A DNA stretch of 64,000 nucleotides. It comes from Heterohyrax brucei. Lineage: Eukaryota > Chordata > Mammalia > Hyracoidea > Procaviidae. Shown here piece after piece: positions 42,001 through 44,547 of this stretch. Position 1 is the first letter of the stretch. Every line of letters begins with the position of its first letter. The notes beneath the pieces were generated by a model that did no database searches, was not told where the DNA came from, and saw only the letters and a program-made list of their open reading frames with translations. The stretch covers positions 23,541,501-23,605,500 of the forward strand of contig CM053140.1 in assembly GCA_028571685.1 (NCBI GenBank), given 5' to 3'. The position numbers were made by a program, and so were the translations under genes.

Positions 42001-44547
42001 ATGAAGTGGAGGAAAATGGGTAGAAGACACTTGGAAGGGGAGGGGACAGGCCGAAGAAGAGCAAGATGGGAGAGACTGAAGGATCGAGGGGCACTGACTT
42101 AGTCTGGATTCTTTAGAAGCAGAGTCTGAGTTGGGAGTGCCTGGGCTCATAGTTGATTGAAGGAGGGCTCTCAGAAGGAACTGGAGGAAACTGAAGGAAG
42201 CCAGACAGATTGCAGGAAGAAAAAGTCAAATAGATAGGGCTCAGCTGGAATCTAGCCTCAGCCTCAGCCCACAGGGAGCTCTTGTGCATGAAGAGCATCC
42301 CAAGTTACACCTCTCTGAGGCAAGAGAAGGTCCCTGGGTGGAGAAAATGGTTTGCATTCAACCACTCACCTGAAGATTGGCAGTTGGAACTCACCCAATA
42401 GCATTGCAGATGAAAGACCTAACTGTCTGCTTCCAAAAAGATTATAGTCAGGGAAAAAAAAAAAAAAAAAACCTGTGGAGGAGTTCTACTCTGAAGTGCA
42501 TGGAGTCTCCCAAAACATAATCAACTCAAGGCAACTGATTTGAAGGGACTTAATTCCTAGCTTCCCCAGGGAGCTCAAATGGCCTGTACTCAACTACTAA
42601 CATAAAGGCTGAGGGTTTGAACCTACCCAGTGATGGCCTTAGGTCCTACAGCGGATGCACCAAAGCTCAACCAGGAGGCAGCACAGCAGCCTCATTCCCA
42701 GGCATGACACCCACCACCACATGCTCTGAGTGGTCCCTATGATGTTGACCACTGACTGGATGGTGTCAGTGTGGCAGAGGATGATGAAGGGAAAGATAGG
42801 GCCTGATCACAATCTAAAGTCCTGGGAGTAGGTTGCCACCAGCTGAGTCAGGTCCACCAGGCCCTGCTTCACAGGGGTGATCTGCAAACAAGGTGGGTGG
42901 TCACCTTAGAAAGGAGCCACAAGAGTGCCCGTCAGGCCCAAAGCATACAGGCATCCCCATTTAGAAAGGTCAGGGGAGAAGAAACTAAGACTAGAGACAG
43001 AAGGGCCACAAGGAGGGAGGGGGAGACCAAAAGGATGCATCTGGAAGCTGCAGAAATGAGGCTCCAGGAAGGATGGGGCTGCCAGCTGGGTGTGGGATGA
43101 GATGAGGGAGGTCCAGGTCATCTGTGAGTCATCATAGCCTAGTAGGGCTGGAATCAGACTAGGGCAGTGGACAAGCGACTGGGGAAACTGAGACAATGAG
43201 AGTAGACAATGCTGTCTATGTAAAGACAGCAGAGCAAGAGAACAAGAAGGCTGGATGAGAAGAGGTGCACTGGAGGTAGGCCAGTAGATTTATATGTCAC
43301 CTATCTGTCCTTCTTGGTGACCTCCTCTAGCATCATTCTGGAGAGAATATCAGAAGTTGGGCTTATCCAGGGTAAAGGTTTTCCAAATGGGCACATAGGA
43401 CAGCCCAAAAGGCAAGTGATGAACTAAGGGTGTTTAAGCCAGATGTATGCAAGGAAACAGGGTTGAGAAGGAACTGTTGGAATGGGGTGGAGAGAGGCCT
43501 AGAATCCCCGAGAGGTTTAAGATGGGTGGAATTGAACAGGAAAGACAGTCGGAAAGGAACTGTGATAAGGGGATGCGAGGCTGGAATCAATGGCACTGGA
43601 GATGGTACACTTACAGGTGATGTGGTTGTGGTCATAGGGAGCCAATGCAGCTTGGATGGAGGGACCTGATGATAAGGTCAGGTTGGTGACTATTCTCAGA
43701 AAGTTTGATCATTAAGGCACAGGCCAGAGTTATCCCTTCCCAAAAAAAGAGAAAGGGAAGTGGCCAATAATCGGCGCTGGGGCTCACTGGCACATTCCGG
43801 GGCTGGAGGGCAGAATAAGAGGAAAAGGTGCTCCAGAAAGGGTAAGGCTAGGGAGACTGCCTGCACCTCTCCTTTAGCCCATCTGTGCCCCTCTGGTGGA
43901 AGAAGAGGGAGGACACAGGCCTGAGGCCAGAGAAGGTGGGCCAGGTAGGAAGAGACCATAGACAATGCCCCTGATGAAGCCACCTGGTCAGGGTGTGACT
44001 GTGGGATAGTCAGGAGGCCCAGCTCTGTCCTCCTTGCCCTGAGAGAGACAGATAGACTAATGGGGGCAACCCAAGCAGGAAATTGATCCAAAGCAAGCCT
44101 GACAGGAAAGGGGAAAACTGAGAAAAAGAGATTAGGCATGCAGGAGGGGAAACAGAGAGAAGAAGAGCAGACCTAGGGGATGAGGGAGGAAAGGGGCTTG
44201 CCTTGAGGTCCCCACTGCTCTGCAATCTTAGATCTTACCCAGCCCCCGACCCCAGCCCCTGACCCCAGCCCCTTGAACTCTATCCCTGTTGCATCACTAA
44301 GTCCTTCCTTGGTCCTGACAATTCAGATTTATCCTATCACCCCACTCACCAGGCCCAGGTGACCCCAAAACCAGTTCCTCTTGGGGGGCTGCGGGAAACA
44401 TTGGAGGCGGCGGCAGGTGTCATAAAAGGTGTAGGTCCATGCCAGGAAGCGGGCCAGGAGCCAGGAGGCACCAGCCAGCAGCAGGAGCAGCCACAAGGAG
44501 GCTGCCCCAGACCAGAGCCCCAGCCATGACAGGCTGAGCTGTGACAT
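14823..44547 (-). CDS. CYP4F: Complete cytochrome P450 CYP4F gene (CYP4F3A-like), 12 coding exons
   Basis: Predicted heme monooxygenase of the endoplasmic reticulum. CYP4F enzymes omega-hydroxylate leukotriene B4, arachidonate and other fatty acids. Coding exons are 44547-44350, 41007-40863, 39675-39622, 39529-39402, 30552-30431, 29721-29451, 29131-29065, 28875-28746, 15942-15809, 15715-15651, 15483-15401 and 15000-14823. Lengths sum to 1575 nt, giving 524 residues plus TGA, the usual family length. Phases are consistent throughout and every intron has GT-AG ends. Visible features are an N-terminal membrane anchor (about residues 15-40), the Pro-rich hinge PQPPKRNW, the I-helix FMFEGHDTT with Glu328, KESLR (ExxR, Glu387/Arg390) and the heme loop FSAGPRNCIG with Cys468. 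It lies about 19 kb downstream of CYP4F22 in the same orientation. Which CYP4F paralogue it is cannot be settled without a tree; its residue 67-114 exon resembles human 4F3A and rodent 4F6/4F13. Transcription was not shown. Confidence 0.95.
15401..15483 (-). CDS. CYP4F: CYP4F coding exon 11 (83 nt)
   Basis: It encodes [20 protein letters not shown] then IPFSAGPR, the meander and the start of the heme loop. The acceptor is TCCTCAG and the donor is CCAG|GTGAGA. Confidence 0.96.
15651..15715 (-). CDS. CYP4F: CYP4F coding exon 10 (65 nt), weak donor
   Basis: It encodes [20 protein letters not shown] plus E. The acceptor is CTTACAG. The donor is GAG|GTGCTG, which lacks the usual A at +3 to +4 and G at +5. 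Length and phase agree exactly with the family, so the boundary is well supported despite the weak site. Confidence 0.93.
15809..15942 (-). CDS. CYP4F: CYP4F coding exon 9: ExxR helix
   Basis: It encodes [20 protein letters not shown] then [20 protein letters not shown] and VIPKG. KESLR supplies the ExxR pair of helix K. The acceptor is CCTTAG and the donor is AAAG|GTGACC. Confidence 0.96.
16040..16400 (+). mobile_element. L1 ORF2 fragments
   Basis: It contains short L1 ORF2-like phrases (AAAATTTTCTGCAAAGCAAA; AATACTAGCTAATGCAATTA) next to coding exon 9. Confidence 0.55.
16420..16675 (+). mobile_element. RTE 3' tail fragment
   Basis: It contains CTGGAGAAGGACATCATGCT and a GACACC-type end. 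Confidence 0.65.
16863..17005 (+). mobile_element. AfroSINE-like SINE, divergent
   Basis: The head is GAGTCCCCTGAGTGGTGC and the body is AAAAGGCCTGGTGACCTACT, which is more diverged than other copies. Confidence 0.6.
17353..17515 (-). mobile_element. AfroSINE
   Basis: A minus-strand copy: ACTGCCATCAAGTCGGGTCT through CACTATGCCACCAGGGTTTC. Confidence 0.88.
18210..18705 (-). repeat. Solo LTR fossil, MaLR-like (copy B)
   Basis: Same family as copy A, in reverse. CCATAT occurs on both sides (18204-18209 and 18706-18711), which fits a target-site duplication. It lies inside an L1. Confidence 0.65.
19945..21062 (+). mobile_element. RTE LINE 5' leader and endonuclease region, plus strand
   Basis: It includes the RTE 5' region and degraded APE-type endonuclease sequence (AATATTGATATTCTAGGCAT). 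It stops at 21062 where an inverted RTE piece starts. Confidence 0.7.
21063..21840 (-). mobile_element. RTE LINE endonuclease region, minus strand
   Basis: It reads back through the same APE region (minus-strand [20 protein letters not shown]). With the preceding piece it makes a large imperfect inverted repeat. Confidence 0.7.
21907..24456 (-). mobile_element. RTE/BovB-like LINE, 3' end through reverse transcriptase to endonuclease
   Basis: The 3' end is at 21907 (TTGTTGTTGTT). The RT domain at 23445-22975 reads [20 protein letters not shown] then [17 protein letters not shown], the BovB/RTE signature. Endonuclease sequence follows at about 24180-24430. It has several frameshifts and is 5' truncated. 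A CTTT microsatellite lies inside at 23835-23910. Confidence 0.85.
23835..23910. repeat. CTTT/CTTC microsatellite
   Basis: It is a run of CTTT units with CTTC interruptions, expanded inside an RTE copy. Confidence 0.85.
24457..25690 (+). mobile_element. Old L1 3'-end fragments with an AfroSINE
   Basis: L1-like 3' pieces include GGACAAATATTATAAGACTC and CACTGGTGAGGATGCAGAGA. A degraded AfroSINE-like element lies at about 25105-25310. Confidence 0.55.
25700..26425 (+). repeat. Unclassified sequence, possibly an old LTR
   Basis: It contains two AATAAA-type signals (near 25878 and 26203) and no gene. There is no second copy in the window to define its limits. Confidence 0.25.
26430..26830 (+). 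mobile_element. L1 fragments, 3' UTR with poly(A)
   Basis: The sequence about 26620-26830 matches the L1 3' ends at 48430-48640 and 49620-49850 (AGTGTGCTGTCACCAGACA) and ends in poly(A). Confidence 0.75.
26983..27315 (-). mobile_element. RTE-related 5' leader fragments
   Basis: It includes GCTGCCATCAAGTCAGTGG and a second, shorter related piece. It is probably derived from the RTE leader or the SINE. Confidence 0.4.
27316..27736. other. No recognised feature
   Basis: This is moderately GC-rich intronic DNA. No repeat or exon was recognised. Confidence 0.3.
27737..28220 (-). repeat. Solo LTR fossil, MaLR-like (copy C)
   Basis: Same family as copies A, B, D and E, reversed. It lies in the same intron as copy B. 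Confidence 0.65.
28370..28570 (-). repeat. MIR-like SINE
   Basis: It contains CACCCCTGTGGGGTAGAGAT TATCCC, a MIR-type core. The ends are uncertain. Confidence 0.45.
28746..28875 (-). CDS. CYP4F: CYP4F coding exon 8: oxygen-activation motif HDTT
   Basis: It completes the I-helix ([11 protein letters not shown]) and continues [19 protein letters not shown] to RQPEEIEW. The acceptor is CCTTAG and the donor is AATG|GTAAGT. It is followed by a roughly 12.8-kb intron. Confidence 0.96.
29065..29131 (-). CDS. CYP4F: CYP4F coding exon 7: I-helix with Glu328
   Basis: It encodes [20 protein letters not shown] then FEG. Glu at residue 328 is the position that links covalently to heme in many family 4 P450s. 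Human CYP4F8 and 4F12 have Gly here. The acceptor is TCTCCAG and the donor is GAGG|GTGAGG. Confidence 0.96.
29451..29721 (-). CDS. CYP4F: CYP4F coding exon 6 (271 nt)
   Basis: It encodes [20 protein letters not shown] through [20 protein letters not shown] to [13 protein letters not shown]. This is the long central exon of the family. The acceptor is CTTACAG and the donor is AAG|GTGAGA. The frame is open throughout. Confidence 0.96.
30431..30552 (-). CDS. CYP4F: CYP4F coding exon 5 (122 nt)
   Basis: It encodes [20 protein letters not shown] then [21 protein letters not shown]. The acceptor is GTTTTAG and the donor is CAGGA|GTGAGT. The upstream intron is about 8.8 kb and filled with repeats. 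Confidence 0.95.
31046..31504. other. AT-rich intronic DNA
   Basis: It contains a short TA repeat near 31112 and no recognised element. Confidence 0.35.
31505..32345 (-). mobile_element. L1 3' UTR, antisense
   Basis: It is the reverse match of the L1 3' UTR at about 8930-9420 and 47930-48400 (TCTTTGGCTGAAAGGTAAAT; TTTTAAGACCCCAAATGCTA). Confidence 0.65.
32346..33030 (-). mobile_element. RTE-related leader fragment and unassigned DNA
   Basis: About 32780-33010 resembles the RTE 5' leader seen at 36640-36800 (AATTTCCAGAATCACAGCAA; AACAAACTGACAGCTGGG). The rest is unassigned. Confidence 0.4.
33445..33610 (+). mobile_element. AfroSINE-like, degraded
   Basis: It has the tRNA-like head ACACTTGGGTACTACCTGAA with a TTTAAGTCTACCCAGAGAT body. 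Confidence 0.5.
33612..36800 (-). mobile_element. Near full-length RTE/BovB-like LINE
   Basis: It runs from the 3' tail (TTGTTGTTGC at 33612) to the 5' leader near 36800, about 3.2 kb, the normal RTE size. The endonuclease start at 36375-36040 reads [20 protein letters not shown] then [10 protein letters not shown]. The RT region at 34600-35200 is broken by frameshifts. It is not active. Confidence 0.85.
36960..38970 (+). mobile_element. RTE LINE, linker, RT and 3' tail, split by a solo LTR
   Basis: The linker and RT start (36960-37509) resume after the LTR at 38064. The 3' tail (TCCCTGGAGAAGGACATTAT) ends near 38970 with AATAGCATCTAACAACAA. It is internally deleted and broken. Confidence 0.75.
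37510..38063 (+). repeat. Solo LTR fossil, MaLR-like (copy D)
   Basis: It starts TGTCATGGATTGAGTTG and ends CAACTAAGACA, with TG...CA-type ends. It is the most complete copy here and is younger than the RTE it sits in. Confidence 0.75.
38985..39180 (+). mobile_element. AfroSINE-like, degraded
   Basis: The body is AAAGGTTAGGGTTCAAATCT and the tail is GGATCGGCTTGATGGCAAC. Confidence 0.65.
39205..39365 (+). repeat. MIR SINE
   Basis: It contains CTACTATGTGCCAGAGATAT then GATGAAGAAACTGAGGCTCA, a typical MIR, about 40 bp from coding exon 4. Confidence 0.7.
39402..39529 (-). CDS. CYP4F: CYP4F coding exon 4 (128 nt)
   Basis: It encodes [18 protein letters not shown] then [17 protein letters not shown], including the helix C segment KW(S)[12 protein letters not shown] conserved across family 4. 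The acceptor is CTACTAG and the donor is CAC|GTGAGC, phase 0. Confidence 0.95.
39622..39675 (-). CDS. CYP4F: CYP4F coding exon 3 (54 nt)
   Basis: This short exon encodes [19 protein letters not shown], matching the family segment AAIAPKDKFFYSFLEPWLG. The acceptor ends CATGTCAG and the donor is CTGG|GTGAGT. It enters and leaves in phase 1, as in other CYP4F genes. Confidence 0.94.
40863..41007 (-). CDS. CYP4F: CYP4F coding exon 2 (4F3A-like alternative exon), residues 67-115
   Basis: The 145-nt exon reads [18 protein letters not shown] then [17 protein letters not shown]. The S-x-EEGL start and WWVGP core match the 4F3A exon of human CYP4F3 and rodent CYP4F6/4F13, and differ from the VTPTEEG type. 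The acceptor is CTGTCTCAG. The donor is CAG|GTACCT, weaker than consensus. In human CYP4F3 the choice of this exon sets substrate preference between leukotriene B4 and arachidonate, so this enzyme may lean to the 4F3A type. That substrate point is an inference. Confidence 0.93.
41200..41550. repeat. CT-rich low-complexity tract (GA-rich in the transcript)
   Basis: It is a long run of TCTC/TCCC-biased sequence about 200 bp upstream of the intact alternative exon. On the gene strand it is GA-rich. Confidence 0.8.
42325..42640 (+). mobile_element. AfroSINE-like copies beside the relic exon
   Basis: One diverged copy with an internal poly(A) run (about 42330-42545) and a second partial head at 42568-42640 (GGGAGCTCAAATGGCCTG) abut the relic exon. 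Confidence 0.55.
42737..42881 (-). pseudogene. CYP4F: Relic of the 4F3B/4F2-type mutually exclusive exon (residues 67-114)
   Basis: This stretch is exactly 145 nt, the family length for this exon. It starts after a good acceptor (TTTGCAG|ATCACC) and reads [18 protein letters not shown], then [15 protein letters not shown], clearly like CYP4F2, 4F3B and 4F12. The conserved Trp codon of the K/R-V-W-M-G-P segment is TGA at 42809-42807. The donor position, just after 42737, reads GG instead of GT. It sits between coding exon 1 and the intact alternative exon, the place and order expected for human CYP4F3. It is therefore a dead duplicate exon, not evidence that the gene is dead. An old SINE piece abuts its 3' side. 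Confidence 0.9.
42900..44340 (-). other. Intron DNA between coding exon 1 and the relic exon
   Basis: There is no recognised repeat. It is of moderate GC content with purine-rich stretches. Open frames here have low-complexity content and no domain. Confidence 0.35.
44350..44547 (-). CDS. CYP4F: CYP4F coding exon 1 (family exon 2): start codon, membrane anchor
   Basis: This exon encodes residues 1-66, beginning [12 protein letters not shown], then a Leu-rich membrane anchor and the hinge [13 protein letters not shown]. The ATG at 44547 is preceded by G and by an acceptor (pyrimidine run then GCAG ending at 44549/44550). This fits the family pattern in which a noncoding first exon is spliced just before the start codon. 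The donor is CTG|GTGAGT, phase 0. An in-frame ATG exists upstream at 44853, but it lies beyond the acceptor and is not supported by the family. Confidence 0.96.

What the first reader, a model, noticed from the sequence alone, without database searches (positions are those of the whole stretch)
42737..42881. A dead copy of the 4F3B-type mutually exclusive exon beside an intact 4F3A-type exon
Human CYP4F3 makes two enzymes by choosing one of two 145-nt exons for residues 67-114. Here both exons lie in the expected order, but the proximal one carries TGA in place of the conserved Trp and GG in place of the donor GT. Both breaks are visible directly. This suggests that the ancestor had the two-isoform layout before this lineage lost one, so the split is older than the primate gene, and this animal may lack a CYP4F3B-like form from this locus.
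Basis: partly seen in the sequence, partly recalled or inferred. Interest (0 to 1): 0.8.

Follow-up and report, generated by a model that had tools for sequence, protein, structure and literature searches.

The report
Fossil exon in a P450 gene
A fatty-acid-oxidising enzyme gene in this animal carries a dead spare exon, and its neighbours suggest that the ancestral gene once held three interchangeable versions of that exon, of which each gene examined now keeps at most one.

Summary
In detail: 42881-42737 (-) is a 145-nt copy of the CYP4F2/CYP4F3B-type exon ("B") with TGA for the conserved Trp (42809-42807) and GG for the donor GT. The gene is otherwise intact (524 aa, GT-AG throughout) when it uses the exon at 41007-40863. 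The interpretation needs correcting. That exon is not 4F3A-type: it is a third type ("C"), 65% identical to recalled rat CYP4F5, 42% to recalled human CYP4F3A. Nine tandem CYP4F paralogs in the same genome carry three copies here in the order B-C-A with regular spacing; A is the true 4F3A type. Eight of the nine keep B; all nine C copies are broken and share a 17-nt deletion; none of nine A copies is intact (one has a TAG as its only lesion). Exon and gene trees point to an ancestor with a B-C-A array, partitioned by complementary loss: the window gene kept C, the other lineage B. So the animal does not lack B forms; the form not found intact is A, the human neutrophil LTB4 type. No RNA was available and comparators from other species were recalled.

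The parts
42737..42881 (-). Dead B-type (CYP4F2/4F3B-like) 145-nt exon; TGA at 42807-42809, GG at donor 42735-42736, AG acceptor kept
40863..41007 (-). Intact C-type 145-nt exon (rat CYP4F5-like), AG/GT
44350..44547 (-). First coding exon of the window CYP4F gene, ends in phase 0 with GTGAGT donor
39622..39675 (-). Coding exon following the alternative exon (e5)
39402..39529 (-). Coding exon e6
30431..30552 (-). Coding exon e7
29451..29721 (-). Coding exon e8
29065..29131 (-). Coding exon e9
28746..28875 (-). Coding exon e10
15809..15942 (-). Coding exon e11
15651..15715 (-). Coding exon e12a
15401..15483 (-). Coding exon e12b
14823..15000 (-). Last coding exon with haem-binding motif, to the stop codon
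39676..40862 (-). Intron C to e5: stretches near both ends align with introns on either side of the A exon in paralogs, but no A-type exon was found between them

Best explanation
The dead exon is one fossil of an ancestral cassette. The ancestor of the window gene and the nine B-C-A paralogs had three homologous 145-nt exons in tandem, B-C-A, for residues 67-114 (the stretch thought to set substrate preference in CYP4F3). Each is 48 codons plus one base, so only one can be used in frame: mutually exclusive splicing is inferred. After gene duplication the forms were partitioned. The window lineage kept C, lost B by decay (TGA, lost donor) and lost A. The other lineage kept B, lost C through a 17-nt deletion before it spread to nine tandem genes, and lost A, once or several times. 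The window gene is thus a working single-form CYP4F with the C exon, like rat CYP4F5 by sequence. Shown: the anatomy, the decay, the shared deletion, the trees with the supports given. Inferred: that all three exons were once used in one gene, and what the C enzyme oxidises.
For: In exon trees B, C and A copies fall into three groups: in the tree on full exon extents A 99.4/99, B 92.1/88, C 75.9/93, C with A 96.6/96 (in the earlier tree on partial copies 99.1/99, 96.4/55, 93/97, 93.1/96). The window C exon alone, as a probe, has its best match in each of 9 of 9 paralogs at the middle relic (E 6.6e-5 to 1.4e-13), and the A exon of gene g1 alone finds the distal relic in its own gene and in the 8 others (E at most 7.4e-15). 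Spacing is regular in the nine genes: B-C about 618-672, C-A 853-1745, A-e5 1147-1298. All nine C relics lack the same 17 columns in the multiple alignment, the window and g8 copies lack none; pairwise, 6 of 9 show one clean 17-nt gap. Exon-to-flank distance ratios: open B exons 0.65 (28 pairs), C relics 0.98 (36 pairs), A relics 0.90 (36 pairs; values, mean). The window gene is outside the other lineage with 99.1/98 in a tree of six genes; dN/dS 0.13-0.26 against four paralogs. As all C copies group apart from A, the C/A duplication precedes the gene split, so the window lineage must have lost A.
Against: No RNA: mutually exclusive use is not shown for any gene here. Human and rodent comparators were recalled, not fetched. 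No A trace remains in the window gene, so its former presence rests on the C group of the exon tree, whose support is moderate (75.9/93). The window B exon does not sit outside the other B exons but beside g9's (84.1/86, 81.6/86), against the gene tree; long-branch effects or gene conversion may explain it. The g8 C copy sides with the nine relics rather than with the window C (87.3/95). Five of nine A relics have a stop at the same codon (TAG in g1, TGA in g4, g6, g7, g10), so A losses may not be independent. The one-exon (e8) gene tree with ten genes gives only 88.7/62 for the split.
Confidence: 0.8

Rival explanations
1. One reading: a two-exon CYP4F3-like layout with a dead 4F3B-type and an intact 4F3A-type exon.
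For: Order B then a second 145-nt exon, same phase; the second shares EEGL and WWVGP with recalled human 4F3A.
Against: The intact exon is 42% identical to recalled human 4F3A (no more than to this genome's own CYP4F22-like exon, 42%) but 65% to recalled rat 4F5; in this genome it matches the middle relic, not the distal one, and the distal relic of gene g1 is 77% identical to recalled human 4F3A.
Confidence: 0.04
2. The arrays were assembled later by unequal crossing-over or conversion between paralogs that each had one exon type, so no ancestral gene held three forms.
For: Tandem clusters of similar genes recombine readily; g2 and g3 A relics are closer to each other than their flanks (ratio 0.35); the window B exon groups with g9's inside the B clade.
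Against: Same order and similar spacing in nine genes, introns between the copies align, one shared C deletion.
Confidence: 0.1
3. The B copy is still recognised by the splicing machinery as a regulatory (poison) exon that sends part of the transcripts to decay.
For: Its AG acceptor is kept and there are no indels; inclusion gives a stop at codon 91.
Against: The donor is GG; substitutions fall on all codon positions nearly alike, as in unconstrained sequence.
Confidence: 0.04
4. TGA and GG are errors or a private allele of the assembled animal.
For: Only one assembly was available.
Against: Decay is not confined to the two sites: 46 of 144 sites differ from the B consensus, 24 codons nonsynonymously.
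Confidence: 0.01

Closest known systems
Human CYP4F3 exon 3 / exon 4 (CYP4F3B / CYP4F3A)
   Same: Alternative exons for residues 67-114 in the order B then A; B exons of this genome group with recalled human 4F2/4F3B and the distal relics with recalled human 4F3A. Exon 3/4 facts from passages of PMC12380495.
   Different: Here a third type (C) lies between B and A; none of the ten genes examined keeps two intact forms, and the window gene keeps C, which the passages read do not describe for human CYP4F3.
Rat CYP4F5 / CYP4F6
   Same: Window C exon is 65% identical to recalled rat 4F5 in the exon and 79.8% over the protein. PMC8476763 (passages) says both hydroxylate LTB4.
   Different: Whether the rat genes carry B or A relics was not testable here.
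Mouse Cyp4f18
   Same: A single-form gene, homologous to CYP4F3A and not alternatively spliced (passages of PMC4647059).
   Different: By that paper it corresponds to A; the window gene kept C.
Tandem duplicated exon substitution events in general (PMC9741552)
   Same: Homologous neighbouring exons used one at a time.
   Different: Here they are partitioned among gene duplicates and known mainly from fossils; the terms CYP4F3 and CYP do not occur in that paper's main text (term search only).

Membership tests
CYP4F subfamily (window gene) | Cytochrome P450 domain over nearly the full length | tested here: met
   Pfam p450, 429.8 bits, residues 52-504 of 524
CYP4F subfamily (window gene) | Subfamily-level identity (above about 55%, recalled rule) | tested here: met
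   80.4% to human CYP4F2 and 79.8% to rat CYP4F5, both recalled
CYP4F subfamily (window gene) | Intact reading frame and splice sites | tested here: met
   12 coding exons, 11 GT donors, 11 AG acceptors, 524 aa
CYP4F3-type two-isoform gene | Two homologous 145-nt exons in tandem, same phase | tested here: met
   B 42881-42737 and C 41007-40863, both 145 nt
CYP4F3-type two-isoform gene | Both exons usable | tested here: not met
   B has TGA and a GG donor
CYP4F3-type two-isoform gene | A 4F3A-type exon | tested here: not met
   A probe finds nothing in the window gene's exon region beyond the C exon at E 0.38
CYP4F3-type two-isoform gene | Tissue-specific choice between the exons | not testable with these tools
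   No RNA data
CYP4F5/4F6-type single-form gene | Exon for residues 67-114 closest to 4F5 | tested here: met
   65% against 42% or less for the six other recalled exon peptides; rat sequence recalled, node support only 48.5/67
CYP4F5/4F6-type single-form gene | LTB4 hydroxylation | not testable with these tools
   Needs expression and assay

The most novel reading that the evidence does not exclude
The common ancestor of placental mammals had a CYP4F gene with three mutually exclusive exons (B-C-A), a three-way switch of substrate preference. Today's B-only, C-only, A-only and B+A genes are what is left after complementary loss in gene duplicates, and this animal has lost every intact A (neutrophil LTB4-type) form.
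Probability: 0.57. Interest if true: 0.65.

Novelty: new variant of a known kind. Interest (0 to 1): 0.52.

Why it matters
CYP4F3 splicing is called exceptional among human P450s (passages of PMC12380495). The fossils here suggest that it is the remnant of a richer ancestral switch, and that gene duplication replaced splicing as the way to keep several forms. It makes a direct prediction: a decayed C exon roughly 0.6 kb downstream of exon 3 and about 1 kb upstream of exon 4 in CYP4F genes of other placental mammals. It also predicts that this animal inactivates LTB4 in neutrophils without a CYP4F3A-type enzyme.

Tried and rejected
Considered and rejected: the '4F3A-type' label for the intact exon; chance similarity (shuffles); an A relic in the window gene (none; the A model built from relics gave only E 0.023, at the C exon). 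I first thought the near-intact A exon of gene g1 showed recent constraint; its exon-to-flank ratios of 0.71-0.96 give only weak support, so I do not claim it. A pairwise realignment of the window B exon slipped at its ends (as did the CYP4F22-like row); the multiple alignment and direct reading are used instead. In one search three of the eight B sequences put into the B profile (g2, g3, g7) were offset by three bases. The first DNA tree of exon copies used partial copies with 10-15 flanking bases; I repeated it on full exon extents, which raised the bootstrap of the B group from 55 to 88 and lowered the SH-aLRT support of the C group from 93 to 75.9. A search of viral contigs for a relative found none (3 stretches matched a pattern, none confirmed). 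First exon boundaries were wrong for e10, e12b and the end of e13 and were redone. Paper searches listed no paper whose title or abstract start describes a third exon of this kind; I looked into five papers by term search only and a sixth; most subscription papers are not in that library.

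
Full report
Names. B, C and A are my labels for the three versions of the 145-nt exon that encodes residues 67-114. Genes g1-g4, g6-g11 are CYP4F paralogs on contig C1 of the window's own genome (G000, 3.49 Gb, 62 contigs; the window is C1:23541501-23605500). g1-g4 lie at 25.56-25.73 Mb; g6-g11 at 23.37-23.54 Mb; the window gene lies between g6 and a CYP4F22-like gene. Exon numbers e5-e13 are mine. Tree supports are SH-aLRT/ultrafast bootstrap.

The observation. The copy at 42881-42737 (-) reads [47 protein letters not shown]. It has AG before it, TGA at 42809-42807 where all 8 open B exons have Trp, and GG at 42736-42735 where they have GT. 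It aligns without gaps to them and differs from their consensus at 46 of 144 sites (16/12/18 by codon position), against 11-23 for each open copy. A B profile built without it finds it with 39.9 bits (E 3.7e-11); the best of 60 shuffled regions gives 5.1 bits.

The gene is alive apart from that exon, as far as sequence tells. With the exon at 41007-40863 the 12 coding exons join through 11 GT donors and 11 AG acceptors into 524 codons and a stop. It is a P450 (Pfam 429.8 bits), 80.4% identical to recalled human CYP4F2 and 79.8% to recalled rat CYP4F5. dN/dS against four paralogs (g6, g7, g9, g11) is 0.13-0.26 over pieces of e6-e13 without e12a, and for g11 without e13. Using B instead gives a stop at codon 91; using both also stops in B, and using neither shifts the frame into stops.

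The intact exon is not of the 4F3A type. Over 48 residues it is 65% identical to recalled rat 4F5, 42% to recalled human 4F3A and also 42% to this genome's CYP4F22-like exon, and 29-38% to five recalled B-type exons. In the peptide tree it and g8's copy join rat 4F5 (48.5/67, weak); C and A together are separated from B (95.7/98).

Three copies, not two. In 9 of 9 paralogs whose B exon and following intron were read (g1-g4, g6, g7, g9-g11) the order is B, C, A. The window C exon by itself has its best match in each at the middle relic (E 6.6e-5 to 1.4e-13); the A exon of g1 by itself finds the distal relic in the 8 others (E 7.4e-15 or better). Spacing is regular: B-C about 618-672, C-A 853-1745, A-e5 1147-1298 bases, start to start of the matched stretches. 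A further copy, g8 (C1:23466039), has a C exon with a lost donor and only decayed late exons in its neighbourhood; no B or A copy beside it passed. Its intron upstream of C matches the window gene's at 71-79% over stretches of 295-470 bases, so it looks like a pseudogene relative of the window gene, although its C exon groups with the nine relics (87.3/95). Not examined: a CYP4F-like exon with two stops on the other strand at C1:23320568-23320834, whose surroundings were not fetched.

State of the copies. B: 10 copies, 8 with open frame, AG and GT; the window copy and g10 (TAG) are dead. C: 11 copies read, only the window's intact. The nine relics in the B-keeping genes lack the same 17 columns in the multiple alignment, while the window and g8 copies have them; pairwise alignment shows a single 17-nt gap in 6 of 9 and other gaps in 3. 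A: 9 copies, none intact; g1 has full length, AG and GT, and one TAG as its only lesion, with 77% identity to recalled human 4F3A. At that same codon g4, g6, g7 and g10 have TGA, g2, g3 and g9 CAG, g11 TCA, so some A losses may share an origin. Genome-wide searches for A by protein (9 matches, 7 of them A copies, from 33 candidates) and by DNA (6 matches, all A copies) found no intact copy; each missed some of the nine relics, and only the best candidates are scored, but an intact copy should have ranked high.

Rates. Pairwise distance in the exon divided by that in flanks averages 0.65 for open B exons (28 pairs, range 0.36-0.87), 0.98 for C relics (36 pairs, 0.61-1.44) and 0.90 for A relics (36 pairs, 0.35-1.11). 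B is constrained; C and A drift.

Order of events. In the DNA tree on full exon extents the C copies, window's included, form one group (75.9/93) and the A copies another (99.4/99), as sisters (96.6/96), with B (92.1/88) outside. So the duplication that split C from A appears older than the split between the window gene and the B-keeping genes. That gene split has 99.1/98 in a tree of 1101 sites and six genes, and 88.7/62 in a one-exon tree of ten. Hence the gene at the split held B, C and A. Because one lineage still has an intact C and the other an intact B, both were presumably usable then. Against this, the window B exon groups with g9's inside the B clade (81.6/86), not outside it as the gene tree would have it; it is a long branch (0.40), and conversion is possible. 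The window lineage lost A without trace: stretches near both ends of its C-e5 intron align with introns on either side of A in paralogs, and the middle does not. dS between the window gene and four paralogs is 0.47-0.67, which I judge, from recall, to exceed human-elephant neutral divergence; the age is an inference.

The animal.

What it means. PMC12380495 (passages read) says that CYP4F3 splicing is exceptional among human P450s, that CYP4F3A uses exon 4 and CYP4F3B exon 3, and that residues 67-114 are the most variable stretch and seem to determine substrate access; it places CYP4F3A in monocytes, PMC4647059 in neutrophils. PMC4647059 (passages) says that mouse Cyp4f18 is homologous to CYP4F3A and not alternatively spliced. 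PMC8476763 (passages) says that rat CYP4F5 and CYP4F6 hydroxylate LTB4. Read together with the arrays here, single-form and two-form CYP4F genes look like different remnants of one three-exon ancestor. Ten searches of an open-licence library listed no paper that says this in title or abstract start, so novelty is provisional.

Limits. No RNA, no second individual, no fetched mammalian comparator. The exon trees rest on 48 residues or about 145 sites. Second-cluster genes g1-g4 were read only around the alternative exons and e8, so their overall integrity was not tested.

Noticed in passing
C1:25725695-25725551 (locus L039): Near-intact 4F3A-type exon of paralog g1: 145 nt, AG/GT, only lesion a TAG; the gene also has an open B exon, so it is the closest thing here to human CYP4F3's layout.
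   Followed up: partly
C1:23466039-23465905 (locus L002): Second C-type exon copy (g8), donor lost, with decayed exons 11-13 about 13 kb on: a likely pseudogene relative of the window gene.
   Followed up: partly
C1:23320568-23320834 (+): CYP4F-like exon 8 copy with a TGA and a TAG on the opposite strand; surroundings not fetched.
   Followed up: no
window 63776-63940 (-): Last coding exon of a CYP4F22-like gene that continues beyond the window to C1:23626005.
   Followed up: partly
window 22975-23460 (-): Degenerate reverse transcriptase reading frame (RVT_1, 22.5 bits, under the gathering score of 29.6); looks like an RTE/BovB element by recall.
   Followed up: partly
window 59376-59708 (-): Open frame with PYSPDLAPNDFFL, a mariner transposase-like motif by recall; no Pfam match at E 0.01.
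   Followed up: partly
C1:23397555-23393866: Paralog g10: B exon with TAG and broken C and A exons, so all three forms are dead there.
   Followed up: partly
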